64,000 bases of DNA from Liolophura sinensis (taxonomy: Eukaryota > Mollusca > Polyplacophora > Chitonida > Chitonidae), in the NCBI RefSeq assembly GCF_032854445.1, contig NC_088298.1, positions 5,638,160 to 5,702,159 of the forward strand. Direction: 5' to 3'. This document shows positions 35,125-64,000 of this stretch, in pieces. The notes below the pieces were generated by a model. The model searched no databases, was not told the DNA's origin, and was given only the letters and a program-made list of their open reading frames with translations. A program made the position numbers and the translations under genes. Numbering within the stretch: position 1 is the first letter of the stretch; each line of letters starts with the position of its first letter.

Positions 35125-36995
35125 ATTTAACTAAGACTGGTACAACGACTTCCAATGGCTTTCACTCTGTCTGACCAAGAAGAGTGTGTTTTGTTTTCAT
35201 TGCCGAAAATGCCACCGAAACAAGGAACTGACGGTGAGTAGAAATTTGGAGAGTGCATTTACAAAGGATGGATTCCAGAATTGGAAAAAGCTAGACAGAG
35301 ATTTCAGCAACATGGACAGAATGAAGGACATCGGGAAGTAGTGTATAAATTAAAATCCCATGAAAATAGACCGATCCAGGCACAACTTCTGGACCAATTA
35401 TCTAAATCTCAAGCTCTTAACAGAGAAATGTTTCTGAAACAGCTGTCAAGTTTGCGAATGCTGCTGAGGCAGGGAAGCGCTATCCGCGGACACCACGATA
35501 TGGAATCCAATCTTGAACAACTTCTTTTACTGAGATTAGAATATAAGCGTCATATCCGACATTCGTATACCACTCGTAGTCCGTAAAGGGCGTTCCAAGT
35601 CGCTAATCGCAAGAATTCCTGCACTGAAAAATTGGAAAAATTGAAAAAAGACCTCATAGGAATGGTGAATGTTGACAAAACAGATTCAGATACTTTGACC
35701 AAATCCATTAAAGATGTCCTCCTTCAGTCCTCTTAGTCACTTAACCAATGTAGAGGTCAGGGTTATGACGGCGCATCAAATATGATAGGAAGCCTTCATG
35801 GTGTGGCTACACAAGTCAGGAAGGAAGAACTGTTTGCTCTCCATGTACACTGCTTCGGCCATTGCTTGTACCTTTGTCTGCAAAACGCTGCTAAACAGTG
35901 TAGTATTGTTAGGGACTCTCTTAGTCTAATTCAGGAAATATACCAACTCATTCGCTTTTCACCAAAACGAAACGCTTTGTTCCAGAAGGTGCAAAGCGAA
36001 ATATCCCCTGCATCTCCAAGTTTGCGTCCACTCTGTCCTACAAGGTGGACGGGCCGCACAGGTACAATACAATCAGTCGTGGACAACTGTGAAGCTCTTT
36101 TGGAAACCACGGAGGAAATAAATTCCACAACGCATGAGGAATGTGGGATAAACACTCTGGGGGAATAGTCGCTCAAATGACGAAATTCCAAACATTATTT
36201 GGCCTTCTCTTGTGTCCTGCTTTCTTTAGGGAAAATCAAGCACTGTAAACTCCCCTCATCGAAATTGACGTGGCAAAAAAATCCTTAACCGGACAGCATG
36301 AAGATGGGTCGTTTGAGATATTTTATCAACAGGTGCTGGAGGCTGCCAGTAAACACACGGACAATCCTTGTTTACGGAGGTATGTTCGAGGACCCGGGCG
36401 TGTGAGAGTACTTTCGTAAAATCTACTTTGAGGTGCTGGACTTGGTGACGCAGGAAATTTCAGGACGGTTTGACCAATACTCCTTGACTGTTTCAAAAGC
36501 TGTACGGGATCTCCTTCTCGAGGCAACAGATTGGGATGGAGTTCGGGATTTGGATGTCAACGAGAAAGTTCTCAAATTGTATGCCAAAGACCTAGATGGA
36601 AGTCGCCTCAAAAGTCAGCTGAAAATGTTACCAAAACTAGTTCGGCAAGTGCGAGAAGGCCCGGGCGTCTTGCACTGTCTTAAGAAAGTAACAACTGTTG
36701 AAACCGTTGTTGAAATCCTGGAGCATACAAGTAACTACCCGTTGGTACCTGCTGAAACCGGGTTGTTCTCAGAGGTCGCCAAACTTCTAAGGATATTCAG
36801 AACAATCCCAATTTCCAGTGCTTCTGCAGAGAGATCGTTTTCAGATCTACGTAGGTTAAAAACATACTTGCGTTCAACAATGACTCAATCTAGACTAAGT
36901 AATCTAATACTGATTCATTGCCACAAAGACCTTGCTGACAAAATTCATTTATTGGGGGTAGTGAGGGAATCCGGGAGGTTTTTCTTTTATCTGTT
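35125..36995 (+). pseudogene. hAT-superfamily (ZMYM1-like, TTF zinc finger/DUF4371) transposase pseudogene
   Basis: Frames joined across breaks give the following. A TTF-type zinc finger lies at about 35133-35340 (WYNDFQWL, FCFHCRKCH, DGFQNWKKA). The DUF4371 core begins with SKSQALNREMFLKQLSSLRM, then GYDGASNMIGSLHGVATQVR, HCFGHCLYLCLQNAAK and LCPTRWTGRTGTI at 35765-36065. The hAT C-terminal dimerisation region is at 36790-36960 (ISSASAERSFSDLRRLKTYL and SRLSNLILIHCHKDLADKI). Stops and frame changes occur near 35210, 35585, 35735, 36165 and 36400. About 75 bases at 35539-35614 replace the expected transposase interior. Such proteins cut and paste hAT transposons; this copy cannot. Terminal inverted repeats and the 8-bp duplication were not found. 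Confidence 0.85.
35539..35614. repeat. 76-bp insert shared with 31272-31347
   Basis: Begins GAATATAAGCGTCATATCCG and ends AGTCGCTAATCGCAAGA. It matches 31272-31347 at nearly 90 percent in the same orientation and without gaps. It interrupts the transposase frame. Confidence 0.85.
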
Positions 36996-37180
36996 TCATT
37001 AGTGCTTTACGCCGTACTCAAGGATATTTCACTTATACGACGGTGGCCAGCATTGTAGTGGGAGGATATCGAGCAGAGACCCAGGGGATCCCAAGGCCAT
37101 CCGTAGGTTGCTGGGGAACCTTCCCACATACGGCAGTGATTCGTAGGCGAGCTCCTAGACAACTCGGCCACCAGTAACAT
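36987..37180 (-). mobile_element. Diverged SINE, minus orientation
   Basis: TTAGTGCTTTACGCCGTACT, ATTTCACTTATACGACGGTG and CATCCGTAGGTTGCTGG match the common SINE read in reverse. It lies directly against the end of the transposase remnant. Confidence 0.8.
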
Positions 37181-38460: not shown

Positions 38461-38541
38461 ATGGCAGATACACAGACATTACCGAACTATAGCTACACGA
38501 CCGACAAAGACTATGGAAGGCCAAAGAAAGAACAACATCCC
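38461..38541 (+). CDS. POLR1B: POLR1B exon 1
   Basis: 27 codons from ATG ([19 protein letters not shown] onward) to CATCCC|GTAAGT; phase 0. Confidence 0.92.
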
Positions 38542-41500
38542 GTAAGTGTTTGTATATCAGGTGTGTGCTACCAGAGTGTAAGATGTTTCTTCGTCTTATA
38601 GTCAGTATGTTTCGTTGTTTTTACTTTCGAGTTTTGTTGCGAAGAAAATATTTTGTTGTTTATTTGTATCAAATTAAACCTCTGACAAACGCATTACGAC
38701 TAAATCTTCGAGGAACAAGAAAGGTTTCGGTGTTACAGTAAGGCATAAGAACTGAGGTTGGGAGTTGTAAAGTTCAGATTGCTGCCATTGTTCATCATTG
38801 CCCCCATTACCAAGTTTTCACTGTCAAAATCAGATTCTCCAGTGAACTCTACTCCCCGAGCAACGCAGCAATCTCGCTCTGGAGCCCATTAATTCACAGG
38901 TGCTTATTTGCAGAGTGTACATCTTAAGTGGAAGAAGTGTTGGGAAATTGAAAAGTTGCATTCCACAGCTAACAGGTGCTCTGACAGTGAGTTGGCAATT
39001 GGACTAAATGAATCTTACGATAGTTTCTGAAATTCTGAGTACTGCATAGAAGGTATTGTTGTCTTGCACTGAGGCACTCTATTTAAAGATGTGAAAAATT
39101 TTACAGACAGAGTGACCCACTGTGAAGCTTAGTCACAGGTAAAAGCGATTTCACAAGAAATGTAGAAATGTGAAGTGATGAAAACAACCTAGCATCACAA
39201 CATTCACTGAGAGTTGTAATTGGTATGCTTCATTCCGAAAAATGGGGGCCTCCTTGGCTGAGGGGGTTAGCACGGCACAATGATCCAGGGGGCTCTCATC
39301 AATGGGGTTGCTGTGGACTCATTCCCAGCTCATGCTGTTTTGGGAAGGTCGTCAGCAACCTGCAGATGGTCATGCAGGCCTCGACATAAGAGGCGATTGA
39401 ACCGGCTGATCACCTGTCGATCTCCTAAATGCAAATTCAGAAGAACAAATTTTAGATCACCATGTAAGCTCCAGGGGACAATAGTTTCACGCGTTGGCAA
39501 GTACAATGTGTTTTCAGTAGGTTGCAAATAGCTAACTTTATTCTACCTACAGGACAATCCGCACAAACTTTATGCCGGTTTAAATAGAAAAAGAACTGAT
39601 GACCGATGTTGGTAAAATGAAAATGGTTGCTTGTTTCGGTGAGCATTGACTACCTGTATGTGTGACCTATGATTGGCTCAGCAAAAATTGCGTGACCAAT
39701 GAAATGTTTCGTTTCATAATCCCAAATAAATGTTTACACCTCGGAGGAGTTTGTGAGTGATGTAATACATGAATACACAGGATATTGACTGTAATTTAAT
39801 GATTAATATTTTAATTAACACTATTACCACGATGAAATCAATCAAAGAATATTATTAAAATCAACATATATGTATGACAATTCTCTGTAAGAGTCTTCTT
39901 TCAAACACAATCAAACCTGATTCTTAAAATGAAGAAAACATATAGCTTGTACATTGGGACCCATTATCTTTACACGGCAACGTGGGTATATGTACCATGA
40001 AATACACCTGTTAATACAAGACATTTCTGTAGTCAGAATGTGGTGCTAATATATGGGTTTCGGATGATGTCAACAAGCACACATAGTAGAAGGCTGGATG
40101 AAGTATGTAATCTGAAGGGGAACGAATGATCCCTTAGACCTCTGTTGGGGTGATAAGAATTTTGATAGCCTGGCAGAAAATCCAGGAGAATGATTTTCTG
40201 ATCCCCTCGTTCATCGTTATGTTGAGGCCTGTCACGGGTTTCCCACTGGTTTTGCCCAGTTTCTTTCCACCATAATGTGGGCCACCATCATATAAGAAAC
40301 CAATCAAATGAATAAATAAATGAAAACCTTTTTTTTTCTCATTCGTTATGAGCATTTTGTTTTATGTTTCCAAAAAACAAGTCTGATAAATCAAATATAT
40401 GAGGTAACAATGGATTAATATCACTGTTTCAGCCATTACAAGAGCTGACAAAGCCTCATACAGACTCCTTTAATTACATGTTGCGAGAAGGACTGACGAA
40501 AGCAGTACAGGTAAGTTAAATGATCATAATGCTTGTCAAGTGAACGATCTGCATGGGAAGATTTTGAGAACATTCGGGTTTAATTTCATCGGTTCCCATC
40601 CTCGGACAAACTTTCCAGATTCACCTGCCTCCACTTTTCTTGGTGTTTTGGTGCAAAAAAAAAAGTTCATGGCACCGTCTTGTGTGCTATGACATGAAAG
40701 TCACTGCGGAATGTTTTCCTATACAATACAGAAAAGTTTACCAGTAACTTGCCAAATTTTTATTTCAGTATTTTGCACCCATTAAATTAATGATTATAAT
40801 ATGTGTAATATGAGTGTGAAATATCAGATTCCCATGAAACTACAACTGTTTATGCTGTAAATTCACACACAGTTATAAATTGTTATAAAACACACAACTT
40901 AGGCACTATTGGCATCGCTAATTACATATTTTATGTCGATCTTAGTTGTTAAATAAATACATACTGAAAATGACATAGTGCTGGTCTCCGTGGCCGAGGT
41001 GGTTAACATGCCAGCACGGTGCAGTGACCCAGGAGCCTCTCTCCGATGATGTCGCTGTGAGTTCCAAGTCCAGCCCATACTGGCTTCCTCTCCGGCCGTA
41101 AGTGGGACAGTCGGCCAGCAACCTGCGGAACAACAGAAACAAATCAAACTGATAATTTATTAGCATGTTTTATGTTTGTGATAAGGTTAAATTAAAACAT
41201 GCTGAAAAGAGAAATAAAGAATGTATCCAAGACAAGTACTGTGAAAAAAAAAAACAAAAAAGAAAAAAGAACAGGCTTGGCACTGAGCTGAGGTGTGTTA
41301 ATTTTAATATGATTTTGTTTCAGAACATAGAACCAGTAGAGTTTGTCCTTCCCAATGACGACAAGATTGCGCTTTTCATTAGGGTAAGATTTATATGGGA
41401 GCAAGACCTGGCTCAGTGGTAAGGCGTAGATATTTCCACGTTCATTATTCTTTGGTAGACACCTACATGTACTTGGTAACAACAAAGTGTTTCATGGCTG

Positions 41501-44500
41501 TCATGAGGCTATTCACAATGTCTAACATTCATTGAAGACCATGAGTGGAGGATCAAGTTTGAACTCTTTTGTCGCTAAGATATGAACAGTCCCAGTGTTT
41601 ACGGGTCACTTTTCGTGTGGTGGTTTGGAAACACAAATGACACCTCTTTCCTTCAGTTTTATATGTCACTTGTGTTTGTTCAGGAAATTGTGTCAGTATT
41701 TAGTCAAAAGTTGGTGCTTTACTCTGTGGCATGTTAAAAAAATTCTTAAGTATGGTGTCAAACAAGAATCAAATAAATACATGGCAATGAGAAGAGAGTG
41801 GACTGTGCAGTTTGGTGCATGAGACTAAAGGGGTTGTGTAGGGAGGAATTAATAGGGTTGTGCAGAACAGGGATTAAAAGGCTTGTGTAGGAAGGGATTA
41901 AAAGGCTTGTATAAGAAGGGATTAAAAGGCTTGTGTAGGAAGGGATTAAAGCTTGTGAAGGAAGGAGTTAGGAGGCTTGTGTATGAAGGGATTAAGAGGC
42001 CTGTGTAGCAAGAGATTAAGAGGCTTGTGTAGCAAGGGATTAAGAGGCTTGTGTAGCAAGGGATTAAAAGGCTTGTGTAGCAAGGGATTAAAAGGCTTGT
42101 GTTAGAAGGGATTAAGAGGCTTGTGTAGCTAGGGATTAAGAGGCTTGTGTAGCAAGGGATTAAAGGCTTGTGTAGCAAGGGATTAAAGGCTTGTGTAGCA
42201 AGGGATTAAAAGGCTTGTGTAGCAAGGGATTAAAAGGCTTGTGTTAGAAGGGATTAAGAGGCTTGTGTAGCAAGGGATTGAGAGGCTTGTGTAGCAAGGG
42301 ATTAAAGGCTTGTGTAGCAAGGGATTAAAAGGCGTGTGTAGCAAGGGATTAAAGGCTTGTGTAGCAAGGGATTAAAAGGCTTGTGTAAGAAAGGATTAAA
42401 AGGCTTGTGTAAGAAGGGATTAAGAGGCTTGTCTATAATATAGTAATAATAATGATATATGTTTAATGGGTAAAATGCTCATGTACATGTAAGTCCTGGG
42501 AAATGGTTATAATGCATATTATAAAGGGTATACCTCGATATAAATTGTTTTACCCTGAACTTCAGTACCCCTCTTACACCCTGTCTTTTCCTCTTTAATA
42601 TCCCCCAATCGCAGCAAGCTGTATATCTTGCAAACTATCTGTACAACAGATAAATGTCCCAAACTTGGATGACAAAATCTGAAGACTTTCAGAAATGCAT
42701 ACCCTTTCTATTTGTAGGATGCGACAGTGTTCAGTCCCGCAGTGGTGCAAACCAACATCCACGCCACCTCCCTGAAGGTCTACCCAGCTGAGGTGAGCCA
42801 GTCAAACAGTTTGCCAGGAGTGTTTGTTAAAGATAGAATTCTTGAAATGTAGGACAGAGATGATTTTTGAGATCAAGATTAATTTTCGCCTTGATAAAAG
42901 TTTCTAAAGCAGCATTCTTTTGGTAGTTGATGAGGTGTTGACGAATGAAATTGCAGGCCTGTATCAAGGTTACACTGGAGCGGCCATGCATATAAGTAGA
43001 CAAGTTTGTCAGGCACCTGCCAAAGGGCAGTTGGTTTTTTTCCAGGACACTTCAGTCTCCTCCATACAAATGCATGGGCATGTAAAGGACCACTGTTATT
43101 TAAGTGAAAACCTCTTAAGCAGTGTTAAACACAAGTCTATTTAGCGAACAAGTCAAAAATTTAATAAAGTGGTGAATAAATAAACATTGATACACTTCAG
43201 TTAAAATATTTTCCCAGTTTATTATTTCACCTTGTGTCTCTGTTGATTCATCTTCACATAGACCTTCATATCTCCAGCTTCATTCTACAAGATCAGACAT
43301 TCTGCAGCTTGGCGTTCAGCATTAAAAGGATAGTGCAATGACAGATTGACCCATATCGGTATAATGGCTGCAACGTCTTGCAACAAGGAGGCACATTACA
43401 TACGCTCTTAAGAACTCCTTTGTCGTCATTTGTTAAGTGTGACGTAAACCCTAAGAAATCACTCGCTCACTCCAACGTAGGGTTCATTGTGTCATGGATC
43501 ATGCCTGATAGCGCCACACTCTGTGTGACCTCACCTTGCACAGGCAGTTTAATGTGGTGAGTTGAGATGTCAGATGTGTATATATTATCTGCATACATTA
43601 ATGAGGTGGCGTAACAAAATTTGAAGAAAGTGTATTCAAATAGCTGAGCATTTATTTCAGTGTCGAGAACGTGGGGTGACCTACAAGGGGAGACTTTTAG
43701 TGAATTTGGTATGGCAGGTGAATGGACAAGTGATGGGAAACACAGAGCGAGTGATCGGTGAAGTGCCAATCATGGTCAAGGTGGGTGTGTCTTGTTACCA
43801 TGGAGACATCAATCTTACACGCATTTTAGCTGATCAGCTTACTCGGATAAATAAAGTTGACTTATTCATGTGTAAATTTGGTATTGGTTTGTGATAGTGT
43901 CTTGTATGGTGTTTTGTAGCACATTGTTGCAGTAAAAGAAAACTTTACAATTGTCTGCATTTCAACCACCTGGCCTAAAGGAGAGACTGTTGTAGGTTGA
44001 GAAAAATAATGTTGAAAGTGATATTAAACCCGGGTGATCATATGCAATTTTTTCAATAGTTGCAATGGCTTAGATTTTTACTTCTTAATTTTGATTGAAA
44101 TGAAAGTATTGAGAAGATTTGGAAATGCTCACGTCATTATTTTGACAGACTTTTAGTGTCATTTCTGCATTACGTGTGCACCTGTTATTGCAATGGAGGC
44201 CTCTCTGGCTGAGGTGGTTAGCACGCCAGCATATCGCAATGACTCAGGAGTCTCTAACCAATATGATTACTGTGAGTTCAAGTCCAGTTCATGCTGGCTT
44301 CCTCTATACATGGAAAGGTATGCAGGCAACATGCGCATGGCCGTGGGTTTGCCCCCCTTTTCTCCTATCATAATGCAGGCCACCGCCTCTTAAGTGAAAT
44401 ATTCTTGAGGAAGATGTAAAACACCAGTCAAATAAAGAAATAAAACTTATTGCCTTATTTGTGTTGGTTTCACAGTCCGAGATCTGTAACTTACACAAGC

Positions 44501-47500
44501 TGGGTCCTGCAGAACTGATACGTCGTGGGGAAGAAACAGAGGTGAGACAATAGCTAATCTTATCTGATAGACTATTAACAAGAAAGAAAGGAAGATATCA
44601 CCTGTCAAATAACTAATACAAATGTATTACAAATATCTGAGTTTAGATGCCCACCATATGACCACGAGAGGGAGATGGATTTAAGTTTAGGATCTGGCTG
44701 TACTTCACCTCCCCGGTTAAAAAAAATATCAAAGAGTTCAAAGAGCCTTTCCCACATGTATATTTCCCTGGCACAGTGTTGGAGGTTTACTCTGTTATTA
44801 TCCACTGGTTAGTGGTTAATGTGCCAGCACATTGTAATGACTCAGGAGCCTCTCGTCAGTTGATGCTGTCACTTTGAGTTCAAATCCGGCTCATGCTGGC
44901 TTTCTCCCTGACCCTGCTCGGGAAAGTCTGCCAACAACCAGATGGTCGTGGGATTTCCTCGGGCTCTGCCCCGGTCTCCTTCCATCATAACGTTGTCACC
45001 ATTGTATAAGTGAAATATTCTGGACTATGGCATTAACCGTCAATCAAATAAATAATTACATAAATTTCTGATTTCAGGAGATGGGAGGATATTTCATCGT
45101 TAACGGAATAGAAAGAATTATCCGTATGCTCATCATGCCCAGGAGAAATTTTGTGAGTTTGTCAATCACCACTCCATGTTATATTTCAGCTTTTAGCACC
45201 AACACTTTTTTTATCTAAAAAAAAAATAATTATAATTATAGTGAATGTTGTGAAATACGAGTGAGAGATAATTTTATGTTCCAAAAAAATTTATCACACC
45301 GTAATGATTCATTCAAAGCTGAATTGCAGCCCTCATAATTAGGGATCACATTCTGCAGAAGCCGTCACCCTTGTAATTAGGAATGGCATTCTGCAGAAGC
45401 CGTCACCCTTGTAATTAGGAATGGCAATCCACAGAAGCCGTCACCCTTGTAATTAGGGATGGCAATCTGCAGAAGCCATCACCCTTGTAATTAGGGATGG
45501 CATTCTACAGAAGGCGTCACCCTTGTAATTAGGAATGGCATTCTGCAGAAGCCGTCATGATTGTAATTAGGGATGGCATTCTGCAGAAGCCGTCACCCTT
45601 GTAATTAGAGATGGCATTCTGCAGAAGCCGTCACCCTTGTAATTAGGGATGGCAATCTGCAGAAGCCGTCATGATTGTAATTAGGGATGGCTTTCTGCAG
45701 AAGCCGTCACCCTTGTAATTAGGGATGGCATTCTGCAGAAGCCTTCACCCTTGTAATTAGGGATGGCATTCTGCAGAAGCCGTCACCCTTGTAATTAGGG
45801 ATGACATTCTGCAGAAGCCGTCACCCTTGTAATTAGGGATGGCAATCTGCAGAAGCCGTCACCCTTGTAATTAGGGATGGCATTCTGCAGAAGCCTTCAC
45901 CCTTGTAATTAGGGATGGCATTCTGCAGAAGCCGTCACCCTTGTAATTAGGGATGGCTTTCTGCAGAAGCCGTCACCCTTGTAATTAGGAGTGGCATTCT
46001 GCAGAAGCCGTCACCCTTGTAATTAGGAATGGCATTCTGCAGAAGCCGTCACCCTTGTAATTAGGGATGGCAATCTGCAGAAGCCATCACCCTTGTAATT
46101 AGGGATGGCATTCTGCAGAAGCCGTCACCCTTGTAATTAGGAATGGCATTCTGCAGAAGCAGAATAAGTGAAAATTTTCACCCGTTAAGTGAAAATAGGA
46201 TGCACTGTCCTTCATGCCATTACAGCATTTGACAAATGGCATCGTTGTGAACATAGCCGATAAAAATAAACTTGACTTACTTTTAGTCCACTCGTTGTAC
46301 TGTATTTCATGCCTAGATACAACAAATCACATCGTCTGAATGTGGCTTCTGAAATAAACTCGTCATGTTTTTTTCATTCTTTCACTTCTAGGTCGGATTC
46401 CATGTGTCAAAACAACTAATTGCATTTTATGTACACGACTTTACAAACCTGATCAATATTTTCCACCCAACAGCCCATGTGTATCGTACGTCCGTCCTGG
46501 AAAAAACCGTGGCAACCAGTACACAGAGTTTGGCATCTCCCTACGCTGTGTGACGGAGGACCAGTCAGGAGCGGTAAGTCTGTTTTGTTGTCATGACAAC
46601 AGTACAGGCAGACAAACTCTGATCATGCCAATATGGGAGTTTCAGTTTGAACTCTGTTATCGCTTTTGGTAAAAAAGGAAAGCCCTACTGTACCATTTGA
46701 CCTGCCTGAAATTGTTTTTTTCTTTTTTTTTTTTTTTTTTTTGATCACATGTGCTAAAACATGAGTGTCTGAAAATACCTTAAAGTTATTTAGAGTAGAT
46801 AAACAATGGAGGAAATAGAAGAGCTGAACATCAGAAAGTTGTGAAGTTTCTAAATAATGTCCACAAGAGTTGCCTTACATTTTTGACAAGACACATGATA
46901 CAGTGGGACATTTTTTGCCTTTAGCAACAATCAAAGTTTGATCTTTAAAGCTCTCCATAGTATTGGTTTTTTCGATGGTTAGCAGGGGTCAAGGGTATTA
47001 AAAGGTAGTTAAGTTGATAAATAGATTTGAACATACAGGTTTTCTTAGTTGATTTATCTATTTATTTCCTGGGTATTATATTTGTTGTATATTTTGATAT
47101 AACACTGAAGTACACAAAATTTTGTTTTCTACATGTTGTTTTGCATGTGAAAGCCTTAAGGAAAGAGTAGTTTCACTGAACTGTAATTTCTTTAACCTTT
47201 TGTATGTTTGCAAGATGTTTGTTTAAGCATATTCCGACAGCATTATTTTGAGCAAATTGATAAAATTATGCTTTTTGTGAAGCCCTGAAAATTTCCAATC
47301 CAACCAATGTAGTTTGATCTCCAAAATCAAGTTATAATTGTGCTAAAAGTGCTCAGAAAGTTTGCTCTTTCATATGCGAAAAGGCCGAGGGTTGAAAAAA
47401 GAAAGATATAATTACTGTATGTATATATACCAGTAGGTTAAGTTATCCAGCCATTGTGAGGCTCCTAAAGGAATAATTGTAACGTTGTCTAACAAAGTAA

Positions 47501-56500: not shown

Positions 56501-59500
56501 GAGTGTCTCATGGCCACAGGGACAGGACAGCGACTCATGTAGGTACAGTACAGCTGGTGTTTACCTGATTGTGCTATATCCCTCATGACGTGGAAGTGAA
56601 CAATCCCATGGAGTGTCTCATGGCCACAGGGACAGGACTGGGCCTCATGCAGGTACAGTACAACTGGTGTTTACGTGATTGTCCTGTATCCCTCATGACA
56701 TGGAGGTGACCAAACCCATGGACTATCTCATGGCCACAGGGACAGGACTGCGACTCATGTAGGTACAGTGCAGCTGGTGTTTACCTGAATGTGCTATATC
56801 CCTCATGACGTGGAAGTGAACAATCCCATGGAGTGTCTCATGGCCACAGGGACAGGACTGCGACTCATGCAGGTACAGTACAGCTGGTGTTTACCTGAAT
56901 GTGCTATATCCCTCACGACGTGGAGGTGACCAATCCCATGGAGTGTCTCATGGCCACAGGGACAGGACTGGGACTCATGCAGGTAGAGTACAGCTGGTGT
57001 TTCCTGATTGCGTTATATCCCTCATGACATGGAGGTGACCAAACCCATGAGTGTCTCATGGCCACAGGGACAGGACTGCGACTCATGCAGGTACAGTACA
57101 GCTGGTGTTTACCTGATTGTCCTATATCCCTCATGACATGGAGGTGACCAATCCCATGGAGTGTCTCATGGCCACAGGGAACCTGGTATCCAGAACAGGA
57201 CTGCGACTCATGCAGGTACAGTACAGCTGGTGTTTACCTGAATGTGCTATATCCCTCATGACGTGGAGGTGACCAATCCCATGGCCACAGGGACAGGACT
57301 GAGACTCATGCAGGTACAGTACAGCTGGTGTTTACCTGATTGTGCTATATCCCTCATGACGTGGAGGTGACCAATCCCATGGAGTGTCTCATGGCCACAG
57401 GGACAGGACTGCGACTCATGCAGGTACAGTACAGCTGGTGTTTACCTGATTGTGCTATATCCCTCATGACGTGGAGGTGACCAATCCCATGGAGTGTCTC
57501 ATGGCCACAGGGACAGGACTGGGCCTTATGCAGGTACAGTACAGCTGGTGTTTACCTTATTGTCCTGTGTCCCTCATGACATGGAGGTGACCAAACCCAT
57601 GGAGTATCTCATGGCCACAGGGACAGGACTGCGACTCATGCAGGTAGAGTACAGCTGGTGTTTACCTGATTGTCCTGTATCCCTCATGACATGGAGGTGA
57701 CCAAACCCATGGAGTATCTCATGGACACAGGGACAGGACTGGATCTCATGTAGGTACAGTACAGCTTGTGTTTACCTGATTGTCCTATATCCCTCATGAC
57801 ATGGAGGTGACCAAACCCATGGAGTATCTCATGGCCACAGGAACAAGACTGGATCTCACGTAGGTACAGTACAGCTGGAGTTTACCTGATTGTCCTGTAT
57901 CCCTCATGACGTGAAGGTGACCAAACCCATGGTATCTCATGGACACAGGGACAGGACTGGGACTCATGTAGGTACAGTACAGCTGATGTTTACGTGATTG
58001 TCCTGTATCCCTCATGACGTGAAGGTGACCAAACCCATGTAGCCACCAGTGTGTGCCTTTGTTTGGTGGGAATAATTATTACTTAGACAAACGATATGTG
58101 GATTTCACTTAAGTTTAATTATATTTAAAATCAGTGGGCAAAACTTATGCAAAATTACCTGAATACAATTGGCACATGACTTGAAGGGTGCCAAAGATAT
58201 TTTAGCCTTATAAATCGAATTGACTTCAGGTTTGTGTTTGTGCGGGGCATGAAACCAAAACTGACCCATGTTATCCAGGCATTAAAATCATTGTGTGAAG
58301 TCTTTCATGGGTAATTGTAGCTGCCCACACTGTAAAAAATTGCACTTAGAAAAAACTGATGACTACTTGTGTTTTTTTGCTTTTTTGTTATAAAATGATG
58401 AATTTTTGCATTGTAGGCCACAGGTCTGACTGTTGTAGCCGACAAACTGAACTTCATGCGTTACATATCTCACTTCCGATGTATTCATCGCGGAGCGTTT
58501 TTCGCACAAATGAGGACGACAGCCGTTCGTAAACTTCTACCCGAGGCCTGGGGTATGTATGCTATGTGTAACATTGTCATTTCTGGCAGTAGAGTGCAAA
58601 TGTTTTTATTTCTGACCAGGTTAATTTGGAAATTTATCACGTACTTGTAGACATATTGTTATGTCATGACAAGGTGTCCAATCCGGTGTCCAGTACGGTG
58701 TCCATTACCCTAATTCTAAGGCCAGATATTAGTACTGCTGAAAGCCAGAAATTCTCCCCCAGTGTTTTGGGAAAAGGAAAGATATGAATACATTGTTCAT
58801 TAGATGGACTAACCATGCAAAAACAAATGAAATATTCTGCACATAATTACACATATATTGGCAAAAATAGAGCAGACTAGGTGTCATAAACTTTCTTTTG
58901 GAAGAAGTTTTTTAAATCCAGCCTCCACCTTAATTGTGTTAGTCACATCTAAAAGCATGACTTTAAAATAATTGGGATCAGCCCCAGTTCTGTTACTCTC
59001 TCTTTGCCTGTATTCCAGGTTTCCTGTGCCCCGTACACACACCCGATGGAACCCCCTGTGGACTGATGAACCACATGTCTGCTCTCTGCCAGGTGAGTGC
59101 GGGACAGGTATAATGGGTGGATGTAACAGTATCGAATGTTATTTTCACATTTTTATAAGGAAAATAGACAGGCATAAAATACAAGAAGAGACAACGCCAG
59201 TCCAAATGTATATATCAGCATGGATAAAGTATTCCACAGGAGGTTTAGGAAGCATAACTTTCTATTTTTGTAATGGTGCATAAACAGGCTATCACAGTTC
59301 AAAGTGAGCAAAAGGATGTGCCTTGAGAAATCAAAAATGCTACCGTGTGTTCAGTGTTAACCTGTCATGTCAGAACCAAATGGCTGACATCTGACCACTT
59401 GTTCCACCCTTATCTGAAGTACGCCCTAACTAAGGTTAAATTATTTGTGGCCTTTTTAAGTAAAACTGTTAACAGAACTCAATCTTTTTCTTTGGAGAAG

Positions 59501-62500
59501 TAAAGTGTAAATAGAGTTTTTAAAAAAAACCTGATTTATTGTTGCAGATTGTGAACATTCAGTTCCGTGTGGCCCACCTCCCGAGAGTTCTCGTGGCATT
59601 AGGGATATGCCCGTTTGATGGGCCATTACCAGCTCCCGTGAAGGAATGCTACACTGTGCTGCTGGATGGGAAAGTCTGTGGCTACGTCCCCGATGAACAT
59701 GCGCAGGATTTAGAGCGAAGGTTACGGGTCATGAAGGTTCAAGGTCAGGAAAAGGTCAGGAGTTTTAATTCATCACTTTAAAGTTGTAAGTAAAATTAAC
59801 GAATTCATTCTCTCACATACTCATTCTTTCTACCCGGCGCGCATAAAACTGGCAAACAACAGTGAGATAAAATAAATAGCTTCGGCAAGGATTTTACTGT
59901 CATCAGTTTCAGCATAAACAATTTATGTATTCATTTATTTGATTGGAAATTTATGTCCTACTCAAGATTTATTTCACTTATATATGCACAATGGCGGTCA
60001 GCATTTTGGTGGAAAGAAACTGAGCAGAGCTTGGACAAAACCCAGCGATTATCTGCAGGTGTCGTGGTAGAGCGTCCCACTAACGACTGAGGAGGAAGCC
60101 AGCATGACCTGGACCTAACTCACAGTGACTGCATTGGTAAAAGGACCCTGAGCCATTATGCTGCGCTAGCACACTTTAAATCAGTAGGCCATGATGGAAC
60201 AAACATAAGTAAATGCTATCGCTGATTTTAATTATCAGTGACACTTCCAGAATTAACCACCAGTGACAAAAGTGCATCTTTGTTTTTGTTATCCGTAGAT
60301 TCCACCACTGATAGAAATCTGTCTTGTGCCCAAAACAAAAGTGGCTAGTCAGTACCCAGGATTGTACATCTTTACCGGCTTAGCGCGGATGATGAGACCC
60401 GTTACAAACCTGGCGCTGAATAAGGTGGAGATGATAGGCACATTTGAACAAGTTTACATGAACATAGCCATAGTACCAGAGGAGATGGAGGTAGCCGTAA
60501 GTTTTCATTTTTATCTCGTATGTCATATATTATATCCAAGGGTAAGATGAGCCAAAGCTTGACTAAATATAAAACTGAAAATCCACTATTTATTTTGTCA
60601 GTGCTCCATGTTTTTATGATATACCTGTTTTTATGATATACCTGTTTTTATGATATACCTGTTTTTATGATATACCTGTTTTTATAGGCTTTCTGATAAT
60701 GTAAATGTGACTTCAGCAGGAAAAATTGTCAGGACAATCCTGGTTTTTACGTTCTTGGTCTTATCCTGACACACCCACTCTAAAATTTAAATTTATCTAT
60801 TAGATTGGAGTTTTTCTGCCATTCTCAAGAATATTTCACTCATACTCAGTGGCGAGCATTATGGTGGAAGGAAACTGGGGGGAAGACCTTTCAACATATG
60901 ACAGGAAAGGAAGCCAATGTAACCTGAGCTTACAGTGAACACATTGGTGAGAGGCCCCTGAGTCATTGTGCTGCGGTAGCATGCTGACTGCATGGCCATG
61001 GAGGCCTCTCTCTCACATTTAAAAAGTTACAGTAGATTATTAGTATTTTTTAATGCTCTCACATTTAAAAAGTTACCGTAGAGTATTCCTATTTTTTTTA
61101 ATGGTCTCACATTTAAAAAGTTACAGTAGATTATTCCTATTTTTTAATGCTCTCCTGTGGATGCAATTAGGGGATCTTGATTTGCACCTGTACATGGATG
61201 TGTTGTCAACTTCTGCTTTTTCTTTTACATGTGGAATAAGGTAATTTTTAAATACCAATGAGAATGTAATCAAAAATTTAATAAAAGGAGACTTTACACC
61301 ATATTTGTCATATTCAGATTAAATTTTTCTGTTTTCAAGTTTTCAGATTATTTAAAAAATTTGGACTATTTTTATAGAAATATTGATAGTGAACAAAAAA
61401 TTTCAACATAAAAAAACAAAAATTTTGTAACAACACACATGAACATCCAAAGACTGTTTTGTTGTGGTGTCAGTATAATGTAACTGGGTGGGTGTCCAGT
61501 TTGGTGTCTTCAGCATGGCATACCACTGAGCAGCATTGTAAATAATTCTGACTTTAATCATGTTGAAAGCAGCATTAATACTCAACCAAGCAAACTTGGA
61601 GATAAATTAGATAGTTAATTATTCCACAAAAGATGTGAAGATATTATGATTCTTTAATGGCATGTCTATCTTGTCTCAGACTTCAGTCTTGCTGCTCTCA
61701 ATCTGTTTCAGGTAACGACCCACCAGGAGCTTAATGAGCAGAGCATGCTGAGTGCCGTCGCCAGCTTTACACCTTTTTCTGACTTCAACCAAAGTCCCAG
61801 GAATATGTACCAGTGTCAGGTGTGTGGCAAGATTGACTCATACATTGGTCAGTTATGTTTTTTTTTTTTTTTTTAATGACTAATTACTTAATTAAATATG
61901 TAAATAATTAGATACCATGTTTTTCACTTCTGGATAATATTTATTTATGTATTTGATTGATGTTTTACGCCATAAATTTCACTTATACGACGGCGGCCAG
62001 CGTTGTGATGGGAGGAAACCGGGCAGAACCTGGGGGAAAACCATGACCATCCGCAGGTTCATGCCATCACTCACCGCTAAAACAACAGTGTATGTTTGTA
62101 ACAGATATATATGTTTGCTTTTGGATGGGTAAACAAACGATGGGCACACCTCTTCATGCCATCGCTCACCGCTAAGACAACAGTGTATGTTTGTAACAGA
62201 CATATATGTTTGGTTTCAGATGGGTAAACAAACGGCGGGCACACCTCTTCATGCCTTCGCTTACCTCTAAGACAACAGTGTATGTTTGTAACAGATATAT
62301 ATGTTTGGTTTCAGATGGGTAAACAAACGATGGGCACACCTCTTCATGCCTTCACTCACCGCGCGGACAACAAACTGTACAGGATCCTCTTCCCACAAAC
62401 CCCTATGGTCCGACCAATCATCTATGACCAGTACAAGGTGGATAACTACCCGTTGGGAACCAACGCTATTGTGGCTGTCATCTCGTACACGGTAAGACTT

Positions 62501-62989
62501 CGGTATTGAACCCTCAGAACACAAAAAAAAAAATTTTTGTAGCATGTTTGTTGTGGTTTTTTTCATCATGGGTTCAATGAAACCATTAACTGTATGTAGC
62601 TTGCTGTTTCTACCAAAGCGTTGTTGAAGTCAAAATTGGTGTATTTTCAAGGCTTATTATTACTAACACATAATTTAGAATTAAGAACCATTTCAAAAAA
62701 CATTTGTTATTTTACCATAATTCACAGTTTGAACTCAGGAGGCATCATGGTACGTGCTCATCTACTTCACACAAGACGGGAACTCACATGATTTGTAAAC
62801 ACTCAGCTTTGATGTCGTATTTTTGTCATTTTCCATATTTTTATCATTTCCGTATTTTTGTCATTTCCATATTTTTGTCATTTTCGTACCCTTTCTGTGG
62901 CACAGGGCTACGACATGGAGGATGCAATGTGTCTGAACAAGGCTTCATATGAGAGAGGTTTTGCTCACGGGGTGATCTACAAGTCAGAG
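38461..62989 (+). CDS. POLR1B: RNA polymerase I second-largest subunit (RPA2/POLR1B), 22 exons, 3' part beyond window
   Basis: Twenty-two exons join in frame to about 775 codons of an RPB2-type beta subunit (animal POLR1B proteins are about 1,130 residues). This subunit forms one side of the active-centre cleft of RNA polymerase I, which transcribes rRNA in the nucleolus. Visible parts in order: N-terminal protrusion ([25 protein letters not shown]), lobe, the [20 protein letters not shown] segment, fork ([20 protein letters not shown] to [19 protein letters not shown]), the Pol I-specific domain 4 (exon 18) and the start of the hybrid-binding domain ([31 protein letters not shown]). The ED pair of GYDMEDA is the family's metal-contact position. 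The ATG has G at +4. Every junction is GT-AG with matching phase except for a one-base insertion in exon 8. About half the introns hold tandem arrays, four of them copied from exon edges. Confidence 0.95.
39244..39378 (+). mobile_element. SINE head fragment
   Basis: GGGGGCCTCCTTGGCTGAGG and GTTAGCACGGCACAATGATC match the tRNA-like head, then CAGCAACCTGCAGATGGTCA. The 3' domain is missing. Confidence 0.75.
40214..40322 (+). mobile_element. SINE 3' fragment
   Basis: CACCATAATGTGGGCCACCA then ATCAAATGAATAAATAAATG; decayed 3' domain and tail. Confidence 0.65.
40433..40510 (+). CDS. POLR1B: POLR1B exon 2
   Basis: 26 codons, [20 protein letters not shown] onward; acceptor CTGTTTCAG, donor CAG|GTAAGT; phase 0. 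Confidence 0.93.
40511..41323. other. POLR1B intron 2
   Basis: AT-rich, with a SINE 5' part at 40981-41129 and an A/G-rich tract near 41245-41275. Nothing else. Confidence 0.7.
40981..41129 (+). mobile_element. SINE 5' part
   Basis: CTGGTCTCCGTGGCCGAGGT, GTTAACATGCCAGCACGGTG and CTTCCTCTCCGGCCGTAAGT; ends at CAACCTGCGG, so the 3' domain is lost. Confidence 0.8.
41324..41383 (+). CDS. POLR1B: POLR1B exon 3
   Basis: 20 codons, [20 protein letters not shown]; acceptor TTGTTTCAG, donor AGG|GTAAGA; phase 0. Confidence 0.92.
41830..42435. repeat. 24-bp minisatellite in POLR1B intron 3, about 25 copies
   Basis: The unit is AAGGGATTAAAAGGCTTGTG(TAGC). The array is bounded by unique DNA on both sides. 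It is not derived from a neighbouring exon edge. Confidence 0.92.
42718..42792 (+). CDS. POLR1B: POLR1B exon 4
   Basis: 25 codons, [20 protein letters not shown] to VYPAE; acceptor TATTTGTAG, donor GAG|GTGAGC; phase 0. Confidence 0.92.
42793..43660. other. POLR1B intron 4
   Basis: Holds the 3' part of a second-family SINE (43285-43476). The remainder is unique AT-rich DNA. Confidence 0.65.
43285..43476 (+). mobile_element. Second-family SINE, partial
   Basis: CAACAAGGAGGCACATTACA and AACTCCTTTGTCGTCATTTG with TAAACCCTAAGAAATCACTC match 34300-34412. Confidence 0.7.
43661..43780 (+). CDS. POLR1B: POLR1B exon 5
   Basis: 40 codons, [20 protein letters not shown] through GEVPIMVK; acceptor TTATTTCAG, donor AAG|GTGGGT; phase 0. 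PIMVKS is a conserved protrusion-lobe motif of the family. Confidence 0.94.
44192..44446 (+). mobile_element. SINE, near full length, diverged
   Basis: Head GGAGGCCTCTCTGGCTGAGG and GTTAGCACGCCAGCATATCG; B-box GAGTTCAAGTCC; 3' domain GAAATATTCTTGAGGAAGAT; tail CAAATAAAGAAATAAA. Lies in POLR1B intron 5. Confidence 0.85.
44476..44541 (+). CDS. POLR1B: POLR1B exon 6
   Basis: 22 codons, [20 protein letters not shown] onward; acceptor GTTTCACAG, donor GAG|GTGAGA; phase 0. Confidence 0.92.
44805..45052 (+). mobile_element. SINE, near full length, diverged
   Basis: GGTTAATGTGCCAGCACATT, GAGTTCAAATCCGGCTCATG, GAAATATTCTGGACTATGGC and CAAATAAATAA tail, in POLR1B intron 6. It ends only about 25 bases before the exon 7 acceptor. 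Confidence 0.82.
45078..45152 (+). CDS. POLR1B: POLR1B exon 7
   Basis: 25 codons, [20 protein letters not shown] then PRRNF; acceptor TGATTTCAG, donor TTT|GTGAGT; phase 0. One of the most conserved blocks of RPB2-type subunits. Confidence 0.95.
45335..46165. repeat. 38-bp minisatellite in POLR1B intron 7, about 22 copies
   Basis: The unit is AATTAGGGATGGCATTCTGC then AGAAGCCGTCACCCTTGT. Several copies carry the variant GTCATGATTGTAATT, and the first copies at 45335-45360 are decayed. Not exon-derived. Confidence 0.94.
46474..46573 (+). CDS. POLR1B: POLR1B exon 8, with a one-base insertion
   Basis: Acceptor CACCCAACAG, then PMCIVRPSW, a run of six A at 46501-46506, and from there the expected residues ([22 protein letters not shown]) appear only one frame over. 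The exon is 100 bases, where 99 would keep phase 0 on both sides. Donor GCG|GTAAGT. If the extra A is real, translation would stop at TGA 49340-49342 in exon 10. Confidence 0.9.
46574..47577. other. POLR1B intron 8
   Basis: AT-rich, with a T-run at about 46716-46742. No array or gene. Confidence 0.6.
47578..47673 (+). CDS. POLR1B: POLR1B exon 9
   Basis: 32 codons, [20 protein letters not shown] onward; acceptor TTCCCTCAG, donor AAG|GTAAAT; phase 0. Confidence 0.93.
47674..49322. other. POLR1B intron 9
   Basis: 1.6 kb. The first 1.2 kb is AT-rich and unique. 48945-49205 is a degenerate tandem region, described separately. Confidence 0.6.
48945..49205. repeat. Degenerate 17/34-bp tandem repeat
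   Basis: Theme CTGGGCACTGTGATTTCCC with the variants GGGCGCTGTGGTT and GGGTACTGTGGTT. It opens overlapping ORFs on both strands that are not genes. Confidence 0.8.
49323..49399 (+). CDS. POLR1B: POLR1B exon 10
   Basis: [20 protein letters not shown] onward; acceptor GTGACCCAG, donor AGAGG|GTAAGT; ends two bases into a Gly codon. Confidence 0.92.
49540..50035. repeat. 55-bp minisatellite in POLR1B intron 10, about 9 copies
   Basis: The unit is GAACTTTATGACTGATTTTG, AACGGTAACGACAGATAGGA, GATGTGATATTTTGT. Copies are about 90-95 percent alike. Not exon-derived. Confidence 0.93.
50222..50363 (+). mobile_element. Second-family SINE, internally shortened
   Basis: The head AGCCCGGATAGCACAGTTGG then TAGAGCGTCTGCTTCTCGAG is a good tRNA-like A-box half. 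The 3' end TCGTCGTCGTATGACTGAAA, GTTGAGTACGACGTTAAACC and CACTCACTCACTC matches 34330-34412. The middle is missing. Confidence 0.8.
50652..50798 (+). CDS. POLR1B: POLR1B exon 11
   Basis: Acceptor TTGGGTACAG, then [20 protein letters not shown] and, at the end, DEDLGRHLF; donor TTTCG|GTAAGT with two bases of the Arg codon left. The last 20 bases plus the donor are the seed of the array that follows. Confidence 0.93.
50779..51445. repeat. 37-bp array copied from the exon 11 donor boundary, about 18 copies
   Basis: The unit is CTTGGGAGACATTTGTTTCG (the last 20 bases of exon 11) followed by GTAAGTCCCAGGAATGT (first 17 bases of the intron). The first unit is the real boundary. Later units alternate between TTTCGGTAAG, which keeps the donor (for example near 50907, 50944, 51019 and 51309), and TTTCAGTCAG, which has lost it. 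Confidence 0.95.
51510..52392. repeat. 26-bp minisatellite, about 34 copies
   Basis: The unit is TAGTCCTGTGTGTAAGGATACCCACG, with CATG, CACG or CACA at the last bases and occasional TAGTCCAG. It has no stop codons on the minus strand, so all three minus frames stay open with a 26-residue period. Those ORFs are artefacts. Same intron as the exon 11-derived array. Confidence 0.95.
52713..52766 (+). CDS. POLR1B: POLR1B exon 12
   Basis: Acceptor [27 protein letters not shown] after completing an Arg codon. Donor TTTTAGT|GTGAGT was chosen because it joins exon 13 in phase; a GTGTGA two bases earlier would not. Confidence 0.88.
52930..53340. repeat. Degenerate 18/36-bp tandem repeat in POLR1B intron 12
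   Basis: Theme GGAATGGGGTCAAAGTCTGG and GAATGAGGCCAATATCTTG, passing into GGATTGGAACCAAAGCTGGA towards the right. Confidence 0.85.
53567..53684 (+). CDS. POLR1B: POLR1B exon 13
   Basis: Acceptor [29 protein letters not shown] through [16 protein letters not shown]; donor AAG|GTAGGG; leaves phase 0. Confidence 0.93.
54265..55205. repeat. 26-bp minisatellite in POLR1B intron 13, about 35 copies
   Basis: The unit is GTTTTACTGGACACACAGAA(AACAAT), more diverged to the right, running to within about 15 bases of the exon 14 acceptor. Several plus-strand ORFs (repeating FYWTHRKQC) arise from it and are not genes. Confidence 0.94.
55221..55308 (+). CDS. POLR1B: POLR1B exon 14
   Basis: Acceptor [30 protein letters not shown] to DVNL; donor CTGG|GTAAGT; leaves one base of a Gly codon. 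Confidence 0.92.
55652..55758 (+). CDS. POLR1B: POLR1B exon 15
   Basis: Acceptor [28 protein letters not shown] then [15 protein letters not shown]; donor CAG|GTACAG; phase 0 at the end. The last 75 bases and the donor are the seed of the 110-bp array downstream. Confidence 0.94.
55684..58037. repeat. 110/125-bp array copied from exon 15 and its donor, about 20 extra copies
   Basis: Each unit holds the last 75 bases of exon 15 (GAGGTGACCAAACCCATGGA to ATGCAG), usually with a 15-base deletion (ACCTGGTATCCAGAA missing), plus the first 50 bases of the intron (GTACAGTACAGCTGGTGTTT to ATGACGTG). Units near 56393 and 57178 keep the 15 bases. Nearly every unit retains a donor (CAGGTACAG, TAGGTACAG or CAGGTAGAG) but has no acceptor. 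Running past the real donor gives a stop (TGA at about 55813) after 18 codons. Confidence 0.96.
58417..58552 (+). CDS. POLR1B: POLR1B exon 16
   Basis: Acceptor [29 protein letters not shown], then [25 protein letters not shown]; donor GG|GTATGT, phase 1. Fork-loop region of the subunit. Confidence 0.95.
58706..58915. mobile_element. Diverged relative of the MITE at 11337
   Basis: Shares TACCCTAATTCTAAGGCCAG, AAAGATATGAATACATTGTT, CATTAGATGGACTAACCATG and GAGCAGACTAGGTGTC with the element in TRIM intron 3. The right terminal repeat is decayed. Confidence 0.65.
59019..59092 (+). CDS. POLR1B: POLR1B exon 17
   Basis: Acceptor [28 protein letters not shown] then ALCQ; donor CAG|GTGAGT; leaves phase 0. 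[13 protein letters not shown] is a hallmark of the family. Confidence 0.96.
59548..59754 (+). CDS. POLR1B: POLR1B exon 18
   Basis: Acceptor TGTTGCAG; 69 codons, [20 protein letters not shown] through [18 protein letters not shown] to GQEK; donor AAAAG|GTCAGG. An earlier GTCAGG (59743) could serve as an alternative donor, but the end used here joins IPPLIE as expected. Confidence 0.92.
59928..60193 (-). mobile_element. Diverged full-length SINE, minus orientation
   Basis: CATTTATTTGATTGGAAATT, CAGCATTTTGGTGGAAAGAA and ATTATGCTGCGCTAGCACAC read the common SINE in reverse, in POLR1B intron 18. Confidence 0.82.
60299..60496 (+). CDS. POLR1B: POLR1B exon 19
   Basis: Acceptor ATCCGTAG; 66 codons, [40 protein letters not shown] to EEMEVA; donor GCC|GTAAGT; phase 0. 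Confidence 0.95.
60608..60690. repeat. 17-bp tandem repeat, about five copies
   Basis: The unit is TTTTTATGATATACCTG, almost perfect. Confidence 0.93.
60790..61010 (-). mobile_element. Diverged SINE, minus orientation
   Basis: TATTAGATTGGAGTTTTTCT, CTCAAGAATATTTCACTCAT and GCATTATGGTGGAAGGAAAC with a head at GGCCATGGAGGCCTC. Confidence 0.78.
61010..61150. repeat. 46-bp tandem repeat, three copies
   Basis: The unit is CTCACATTTAAAAAGTTACA then GTAGATTATTCCTATTTTTTAATG. Confidence 0.9.
61712..61819 (+). CDS. POLR1B: POLR1B exon 20
   Basis: Acceptor [45 protein letters not shown]; donor CAG|GTGTGT; phase 0. [15 protein letters not shown] spans this junction in the family. Confidence 0.94.
61937..62062 (-). 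mobile_element. 5'-truncated SINE, minus orientation
   Basis: TATTTGATTGATGTTTTACG, TTCACTTATACGACGGCGGC and GACCATCCGCAGGTT; the head half is missing. Its right end abuts the first unit of the exon 21-derived array. Confidence 0.82.
62063..62345. repeat. 95-bp array copied from the exon 21 acceptor boundary, three copies including the real one
   Basis: The unit runs from CATGCCATCGCTCACCGCTA through AACAGACATATATGTTTGGT to TTCAGATGGGTAAACAAACG and GGCACACCTCTT. It contains the intron end, the 3' splice site and the first 36-38 exon bases. Copy 1 has lost the AG (CTTTTGG|ATGGG), copy 2 keeps TTTCAG, and the third is the real exon 21 start. Pseudo-exon copies run into an in-frame TAA soon after (CACCGCTAA or TACCTCTAA). 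Confidence 0.93.
62315..62491 (+). CDS. POLR1B: POLR1B exon 21
   Basis: Acceptor TTGGTTTCAG; 59 codons, [20 protein letters not shown] through [20 protein letters not shown] to VISYT; donor ACG|GTAAGA; phase 0. Start of the hybrid-binding domain. Confidence 0.96.
62906..62989 (+). CDS. POLR1B: POLR1B exon 22
   Basis: Acceptor TGTGGCACAG; 28 codons, [20 protein letters not shown] then HGVIYKSE; donor GAG|GTAAGT; phase 0. Contains the ED residues of the metal-contact motif and the NKASxERG motif. The coding region continues outside the window. Confidence 0.96.
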
Positions 62990-64000
62990 GTAAGTACACA
63001 GTAGCTGTGTGATGGGAGGATTTGGTCACGGGATGATCTACAAGACAGAGGTAAGTACGCAGTAGCTGTGTGATGGGAGGATTTGGTCACAGGGCGATCT
63101 ACAAGTCAGAGGTAAGTACGCAGTAGCTGTGTGATGGGAGGATTTGGTCACGGGGTGATTTACAAGTCAGAGGTAAGTACGCAGTAGCTGTGTGATGGGA
63201 GGATTTGGTCACGGGGTGATCTACAAGTCAGAGGTAAGTACGCAGTAGCTGTGTGATGGGAGGATTTGGTCACGGGGCGATCTACAAGTCAGAGGTAAGT
63301 GCGCAGTAGCTGTGTGATGGGAGGATTTGGTCACGGGGTGATCTACCAGTCAGAGGTAAGTGTGCAGTAGCTGTGTGATGGGAGGATTTGGTCACGGGGT
63401 GATCTACAAGTCAGAGGTAAGTACGCAGTAGATGTGTGATGGGAGGATTTGGTCATGGGGTGATCTACAAGTCAGAGGTAAGTACGCAGTAGCTGTGTGA
63501 TGGGAGGATTTGGTCACAGGGCGATCTACAAGTCAGAGGTAAGTACGTAAGTACACAGTAGCTGTGTGATGGGAGGATTTGGTCAAGGGTTGATCTACAT
63601 GTCAGAGGTAAGTACGCAGTAGCTGTGTGATGGGAGGATTTGGTCACGGGGTGATCTACAAGTCAGAGGTAAGTACGCAGTAGCTGTGTGATGGGAGGAT
63701 TTGGTCACGGGTTGATCTACAAGTCAGAGGTAAGTGCGCAGTAGCTGTGTGATGGGAGGATTTGGTCACAGGGCGATCTACAAGTCAGAGGTAAGTACGC
63801 AGTAGCTGTGTGATGGGAGGATTTGGTCACTGGGAGATCTACAAGTCAGAGGTAAGTACGCAGTAGCTGTGTGATGGGAGGATTTGGTCACGGGGAGATC
63901 TACAAGTCAGAGGTAAGTGCGCAGTAGCTGTGTGATGGGAGGATTTGGTCACGGGGAGATCTACAAGTCAGAGGTAAGTACGCAGTAGCTGTGTGATGGG
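62958..64000. repeat. 61-bp array copied from the exon 22 donor boundary, about 17 copies, runs off the window
   Basis: The unit is the last 32 bases of exon 22 (GATTTGGTCACGGGGTGATC then TACAAGTCAGAG) plus the first 29 intron bases (GTAAGTACGCAGTAGCTGTG then TGATGGGAG). Every unit I read keeps a consensus CAGAG|GTAAGT donor, with GTAAGTG variants in some. One unit near 63545 has a short GTAAGTAC duplication. The right end of the array is not seen. Confidence 0.97.

What the first reader, a model, noticed from the sequence alone, without database searches (positions are those of the whole stretch)
38461..64000. Repeated tendency of one housekeeping gene to turn splice boundaries into minisatellites
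Four independent arrays with different unit lengths (37, 95, 110 and 61 bases) in one gene are built from exon-intron junctions (three donor-side, one acceptor-side). About six other introns have arrays unrelated to exons. A mechanism tied to splice boundaries (for example R-loop or nick-repair slippage at junctions of a highly transcribed gene, or repair from nascent RNA) would explain the bias; chance would rarely put four array seeds across exon edges that make up a small part of the gene. I know of no named system for this.
Basis: inference. Interest (0 to 1): 0.85.

Follow-up and report, generated by a model that had tools for sequence, protein, structure and literature searches.

The report
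Splice-boundary minisatellites in a mollusc genome
In a mollusc genome crowded with minisatellites, several housekeeping genes carry tandem repeats built from an exon end plus the start of the intron; this kind of repeat already has a name ("mirages") in amphioxus, and here it appears somewhat more often than random placement predicts, though that excess is not settled.

Summary
The gene is POLR1B (RNA polymerase I subunit RPA2). Four arrays (units 37, 110, 95, 61) span three donors and one acceptor, and the reading frame is intact around them. "No named system" is wrong: minisatellites spanning exon-intron boundaries are called "mirages" in amphioxus (PMC3087553, PMC3902484). This genome carries an eight-unit haemocyanin gene of molluscan type, so it is not amphioxus.

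I tested the claimed bias in 19 other conserved genes (34 arrays). Seven arrays are contiguous with exon edges, nine with two found by homology. Uniform placement predicts 3.05 (P=0.025; 0.0018 with the two). Stricter nulls weaken this (GC-weighted 3.63, P=0.057; longest period 4.18, P=0.105), as does dropping one array whose real exon I did not see (6 of 33, P=0.053). The last-fetched pieces show no excess. Donors outnumber acceptors (9:2, P=0.065; 11:2 with the two, P=0.022).

Best reading: ordinary DNA-level tandem duplication in an array-rich genome, tolerated at exon edges because the original splice site stays usable, more so at donors. Repair from spliced RNA is disfavoured; other transcription- or splicing-linked seeding is not excluded.

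The parts
38468..64000 (+). POLR1B (RNA polymerase I subunit RPA2) gene, exons 38468-38541 to 62906-62989 inside the window, continuing to about 13.5 kb beyond it
   Evidence: spliced alignment, intact 1129-aa frame over 31 exons; PDB best match RPA2
50652..50798 (+). exon whose donor end seeds the 37-nt array
50778..51456 (+). 37-nt array, 18.4 copies, 21 nt of exon plus donor; 17 of 18 aligned copies keep GT, 9 of 18 read CAGTCAGT instead of CGGTAAGT
55652..55758 (+). exon whose donor end seeds the 110-nt array
55738..58039 (+). 110-nt array (220-nt higher order), 20.8 copies; 21 of 21 aligned copies keep GT; 17 places lack a 15-nt exon segment, 2 have it
62058..62362 (+). 95-nt array, 3.2 copies, acceptor plus 48 nt of exon; 2 of 3 aligned copies keep AG
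62315..62491 (+). exon whose acceptor end lies in the 95-nt array
62906..62989 (+). exon whose donor end seeds the 61-nt array
62955..64000 (+). 61-nt array, 26 copies in all, continuing 559 nt past the window; 25 of 26 aligned copies keep GT
41826..42432 (+). intron array, 24-nt unit, no match to an accepted exon of the gene
45336..46160 (+). intron array, 38-nt unit, no match to an accepted exon of the gene
48952..49122 (+). intron array, 19/59-nt unit, no match to an accepted exon of the gene
49536..50034 (+). intron array, 55-nt unit, no match to an accepted exon of the gene
51505..52392 (+). intron array, 26-nt unit, in the same intron as the 37-nt array
52948..53339 (+). two intron arrays (18/54-nt and 20/60-nt units)
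54259..55201 (+). intron array, 26-nt unit, ends 19 nt before an exon, no match to an accepted exon
60609..61154 (+). two intron arrays (17-nt and 46-nt units)
62816..62888 (+). intron array, 17/34-nt unit, ends 17 nt before an exon

Best explanation
These are 'mirages': minisatellites whose founding tandem duplication happened to straddle an exon edge. The genome is rich in minisatellites (shown for introns of 20 genes and for the rest of the window). A DNA-level duplication (slippage or unequal exchange, inferred) copies an exon end, the splice site and some intron. The exon-side original keeps working (inferred from the intact frame), so the copies become intron and then expand as any minisatellite does, from internal copies (shown by changes shared among copies and absent from the exon). 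Duplications wholly inside exons are removed by selection (inferred), so edges are the main place where exon sequence can seed an array. Donor-side duplications are tolerated more than acceptor-side ones because an extra downstream donor can be ignored while an extra upstream acceptor is met first (inferred), which would give the donor excess. The remaining modest excess at edges may come from a GC preference plus chance, or from a weak preference for exon edges.
For: Arrays (TRF score >=100) cover 14.5% of 210,699 sampled intron bases and 14.0% of window 1-38000, outside this gene. Contiguous edge arrays occur in 6 of 20 sampled genes: POLR1B 4, CCT3 2, POLR3B 2, CCT5 1, CCT6 1, MCM6 1; homology adds one in POLR2B and a third in POLR3B. 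Their mean unit is 77 nt, against 73 expected if units of the observed lengths fall at random and 39 for other arrays. The POLR1B frame is intact. In the 61-nt array an 11-nt exon stretch occurs once and a form with two changes 23 times; in the 110-nt array 17 places lack a 15-nt exon segment and 2 have it. In 8 of 9 donor arrays the frame of my models meets a stop 1-66 nt past the donor (for one POLR3B array read from an array copy), so the first donor should normally be used. Seeds somewhat favour GC: 42 non-edge arrays average 0.414, array-free intron windows 0.370. Amphioxus mirages are reported not to interfere with regular splicing (PMC3087553 passages).
Against: Uniform and GC-weighted placement under-predict edge arrays in the 19 other genes once the two homology cases are counted (9 of 34 against 3.05 or 3.63, P=0.0018 or 0.0057; 8 of 33 against 2.83, P=0.0042, with the uncertain array dropped), so tolerance plus chance may not be all. 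The donor excess (9:2, P=0.065; 11:2, P=0.022; 8:2, P=0.11 and 10:2, P=0.039 with the uncertain array dropped) has a selection explanation that was not tested. No transcripts were available. Copies show no clear purging of pseudo-donors: 123 of 139 aligned donor copies keep GT (copies were picked by similarity to the real site, which inflates this).
Confidence: 0.68

Rival explanations
1. Splice-linked or transcription-linked seeding: a process at exon-intron junctions (R-loop, nick repair, pausing, chromatin at exon ends) starts duplications there more often, above all at donors.
For: Edge arrays in 19 genes not used for discovery: 7 of 34 against 3.05, P=0.025; 9 of 34, P=0.0018. Donor excess 11:2, P=0.022. 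Non-edge arrays lie within 20 nt of an exon 7 times of 42 against 3.17 expected.
Against: 7 of 34 against 4.18 (P=0.105) with the longest period; 6 of 33 against 2.83 (P=0.053) or 3.95 (P=0.19) with the uncertain array dropped; no excess in the last-fetched pieces, 1 of 10 against 1.13; unit lengths fit random placement; exon portions of units vary from 19 to 97 nt; arrays are about as dense in window 1-38000 as in the sampled introns.
Confidence: 0.16
2. No bias at all: edges are hit at the random rate and the sample excess is chance plus post-hoc counting. This differs from the best explanation only in leaving nothing beyond chance to explain, so the two overlap.
For: Pieces fetched last: 1 (2 with homology) of 10 arrays against 1.13, P=0.72 (0.31), and 0 (1) of 9 against 0.91 with the uncertain array dropped. 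Contiguous arrays only: P=0.057 with GC weighting, 0.105 with the longest period, 0.053 and 0.19 with the uncertain array dropped.
Against: With the homology cases every version that pools the 19 genes gives P of 0.03 or less; the null ignores selection against edge duplications and so should over-predict.
Confidence: 0.32
3. Repair or copying from RNA (spliced mRNA or nascent transcript) writes exon ends into the gene.
For: None found beyond the presence of exon sequence.
Against: The units contain intron, so spliced mRNA cannot be the template; 23 copies of the 61-nt array share changes absent from the exon, which points to expansion from array DNA. Unspliced RNA as template is not excluded.
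Confidence: 0.02
4. The arrays serve splicing (for example as donor reservoirs or regulated alternative exon ends).
For: Donor GT kept in 123 of 139 aligned copies; the CCT3 66-nt array is in frame and stop-free over the 300 nt read.
Against: In 8 of 9 donor arrays a stop follows within 66 nt of the donor; the POLR3B 75-nt array consensus has TTAAGT where the exon has GTAAGT; 9 of 18 copies of the 37-nt array have the changed donor CAGTCAGT.
Confidence: 0.03
5. Assembly artefact: collapsed or inflated repeats.
For: Copy number in arrays is often wrong in assemblies (recalled); no reads available.
Against: Copies differ from each other, and contiguous edge arrays occur in 6 genes on 4 contigs.
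Confidence: 0.02

Closest known systems
Amphioxus 'mirages' (Adh3, globin BflGb6 and BflGb9, PGBD5, reported also for TnC)
   Same: Minisatellite-like tandem copies spanning an exon-intron boundary, donor or acceptor side, many but not all copies keeping AG/GT; units 10-160 nt (passages of PMC3087553 and PMC3902484).
   Different: Here in a mollusc; up to 26 copies; up to four per gene; donor side in excess in the sample; splicing and somatic instability not tested.
Intron gain by tandem genomic duplication (Rogers model; AGGT duplications)
   Same: Tandem duplication that includes splice-site sequence.
   Different: In the four POLR1B introns the opposite splice site lies outside the array, so the array did not create the intron.
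Ordinary intronic minisatellites
   Same: Similar copy numbers and copy identity; growth from internal copies.
   Different: The unit includes coding sequence and a splice site; units are longer on average (77 against 39 nt).

Membership tests
mirage (exon-intron-boundary minisatellite) | tandem unit spans an exon-intron boundary | tested here: met
   11 of 55 arrays contiguous with an exon edge in 20 genes, 4 of them in POLR1B; one of the 11 rests on an array copy, its real exon not fetched
mirage (exon-intron-boundary minisatellite) | many but not all copies keep the splice dinucleotide | tested here: met
   123 of 139 aligned donor copies, 8 of 9 aligned acceptor copies
mirage (exon-intron-boundary minisatellite) | either boundary can be duplicated | tested here: met
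   9 donor, 2 acceptor
mirage (exon-intron-boundary minisatellite) | regular splicing is not disturbed | not testable with these tools
   no transcripts; only the intact 1129-aa frame
mirage (exon-intron-boundary minisatellite) | length or somatic instability | not testable with these tools
   one assembly, no reads
intron gain by tandem duplication | both splice sites of the intron derive from the duplicated segment | tested here: not met
   for the 4 POLR1B introns the partner sites 52713, 58417, 61819 and 65648 lie outside the arrays; not checked for the other genes

The most novel reading that the evidence does not exclude
Minisatellites in this mollusc are seeded preferentially at exon edges, above all at splice donors, by a process coupled to transcription or splicing, so that coding genes keep generating multi-copy donor tracts that could be raw material for new exon ends and introns.
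Probability: 0.16. Interest if true: 0.75.

Novelty: new member of a known kind. Interest (0 to 1): 0.45.

Why it matters
Mirages were described gene by gene in amphioxus. Finding them in several housekeeping genes of a mollusc, at about 2% of sampled exon edges (11 of 548), suggests a general by-product of minisatellite-rich genomes. It also offers natural tests of splice-site choice: 26 near-identical donors in a row of which only the first should be usable. If the donor excess holds genome-wide it gives a measurable asymmetry in how evolution tolerates duplicated donors and acceptors.

Tried and rejected
Amphioxus origin: rejected on the haemocyanin gene (one search matches haemocyanin chains; that this family is molluscan is recalled). 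The GFP search is uninformative because no control rang. MCM8/9-like loci L024 and L026 were fetched but dropped: exon models too poor. Family or protein hits not fetched: two CCT-family matches in long single frames (C5, C6), one clathrin match (C2), two adaptin matches (C6, C8). Of 348 chained exons, 294 scoring 30 or more were kept; one false POLR3B exon was then removed by hand (on), so the 548 edges are 546. In the later POLR3B piece the exon-like match at 2020-2106 is an array copy; its real exon must lie before the fetched piece and was not seen. Retention of donors could not be read as selection because copies were chosen by similarity. A microhomology test at unit limits was considered and not run, since TRF limits are fuzzy. 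Literature: five searches on mirages or boundary minisatellites and four on tandem duplication, intron gain or intron repeats listed no report of boundary minisatellites in molluscs; two searches showed only 12 of 202 and 10 of 47 papers, and I saw listings only. A search on duplicated donors gave nothing that I used. A conotoxin gene-structure paper (PMC3862624, passages) mentions simple intron repeats. The founding paper (Nucl Acids Res 2002, PMC117041) is not held, so its content is taken from passages of two citing papers.

Full report
What is there. The 38-64 kb part of the window is the POLR1B gene on the + strand. A 332-residue stretch matches RNA polymerase I subunit RPA2 best among solved structures (E=5.5e-142). 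They overlap an exon by 21, 21, 48 and 35 nt and run on into intron; the splice sites are canonical. The 61-nt array runs past the window end, and all 26 matches that a search of the genome listed lie at this locus (such counts are lower bounds). Nine introns in the window part hold other arrays.

Which organism. The genome (609 Mb, 632 contigs) has eight tandem haemocyanin beta-sandwich matches in open frames of 429-529 residues, and one unit matches haemocyanin chains in the PDB. I take it to be a mollusc; that this family is molluscan is recalled, not printed by the call. The species is not known.

Is it more than chance? I fetched pieces holding 19 other conserved genes (CCT1-8, HSP60, MCM2-7, POLR2B, POLR3B, CLTC, AP2B1), aligned references recalled from memory, and kept exons with a local score of 30 or more: 294 of 348 chained exons and 548 internal edges in 20 genes. 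Two further loci were dropped for poor models. Inside these genes lie 55 TRF arrays with score 100 or more, none wholly within an exon. Eleven are contiguous with an exon edge (at least 8 nt on either side): POLR1B 4, CCT3 2, POLR3B 2, CCT5 1, CCT6 1, MCM6 1; 9 at donors and 2 at acceptors. One POLR3B case rests on array copies whose real exon was not fetched. A BLAST of array units against exons of the same gene found two more, POLR2B (40-nt unit, 17-nt exact match) and POLR3B (75-nt unit, 18-nt exact match), matching at or near an exon's 3' end but separated from it; this criterion was added afterwards.

The null puts one unit-length seed per array uniformly in the gene, never wholly inside an exon. 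Leaving POLR1B out: 34 arrays, 3.05 expected, 7 seen (P=0.025), 9 with the homology cases (P=0.0018). With seeds weighted by the GC preference of non-edge arrays: 3.63 expected, P=0.057 and 0.0057. With the best-scoring rather than the shortest period: 4.18 expected, P=0.105 and 0.014. Requiring 16 nt overlap gives 1.87 expected, P=0.0012 and 0.00003; 2.20 with GC weighting, P=0.0029 and 0.00005; 3.03 with the best-scoring period, P=0.019 and 0.0009. Dropping the uncertain POLR3B array: 6 (8) of 33 against 2.83, P=0.053 (0.0042), or against 3.95 with the best-scoring period, P=0.19 (0.030). The pieces fetched last, taken as a replicate, give 1 (2) of 10 against 1.13, P=0.72 (0.31), and 0 (1) of 9 against 0.91 without the uncertain array. 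I read this as a modest excess of perhaps 1.5-3-fold by the 8-nt criterion, not settled.

What the anatomy says about origin. The units carry intron as well as exon, which excludes spliced mRNA as template. In the 61-nt array the exon form of an 11-nt stretch occurs once and a form with two changes 23 times, so the array grew from an internal copy. The exon part of units varies from 19 to 97 nt and the edge-array unit lengths (mean 77) fit the size-biased expectation of random placement (73, s.d. 12). Both fit a duplication that happens to cover the edge better than one that starts at it. On the other side, non-edge arrays lie within 20 nt of an exon 7 times of 42 against 3.17 expected. Arrays are about as dense in window 1-38000 (14.0%) as in the sampled introns (14.5%), while window 38461-64000 is richer (34.9%).

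How the gene lives with it. Reading on past the donor meets a stop within 1-66 nt in 8 of 9 donor arrays, in the frame of my models (one read from an array copy), so the first donor should normally be chosen; that is inferred, there being no transcripts. Copies keep GT in 123 of 139 aligned donor sites and AG in 8 of 9 aligned acceptor sites. In the POLR3B 75-nt array the donor GT has become TT in the consensus. The donor excess (9:2, P=0.065; with homology cases 11:2, P=0.022; without POLR1B 6:1, P=0.125, or 8:1, P=0.039; 8:2, P=0.11, or 10:2, P=0.039, without the uncertain array) fits the idea that a spare downstream donor is harmless while a spare upstream acceptor is met first; this is inference.

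Comparison with the known. [quoted passage not shown] a passage of PMC3902484 adds PGBD5 and troponin C. The present arrays meet the three features that I could test. They are not intron gain by duplication in POLR1B, because the partner splice sites lie outside the arrays. My searches listed no report from molluscs, but the library lacks most subscription papers and some lists were cut short.

Noticed in passing
L013, reverse complement 7483-8337: The 66-nt donor array of CCT3 is in frame and free of stops over the 300 nt read, so use of later donors would add 22-residue repeats to the protein.
   Followed up: partly
window 12408-14762, 15110-16081, 26391-27639: Large 42-, 82- and 61-nt arrays outside POLR1B; the first two lie between frames resembling RING and SPRY domains (labels recalled).
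   Followed up: no
window 35242-37002: Frames resembling a hAT-type transposase-derived protein (label recalled, no family search run).
   Followed up: no
G000 C8:37880506-37891931: Eight haemocyanin beta-sandwich matches in a row, in open frames of 429-529 residues.
   Followed up: partly
L013 rc 506-1048; L014 2389-2640; POLR2B model (L033+L027) 4331 onward: Arrays that begin or end within about 1 nt of an exon and so include the splice site with little or no exon; 3 of 42 non-edge arrays lie within 5 nt of an exon against 0.91 expected.
   Followed up: partly
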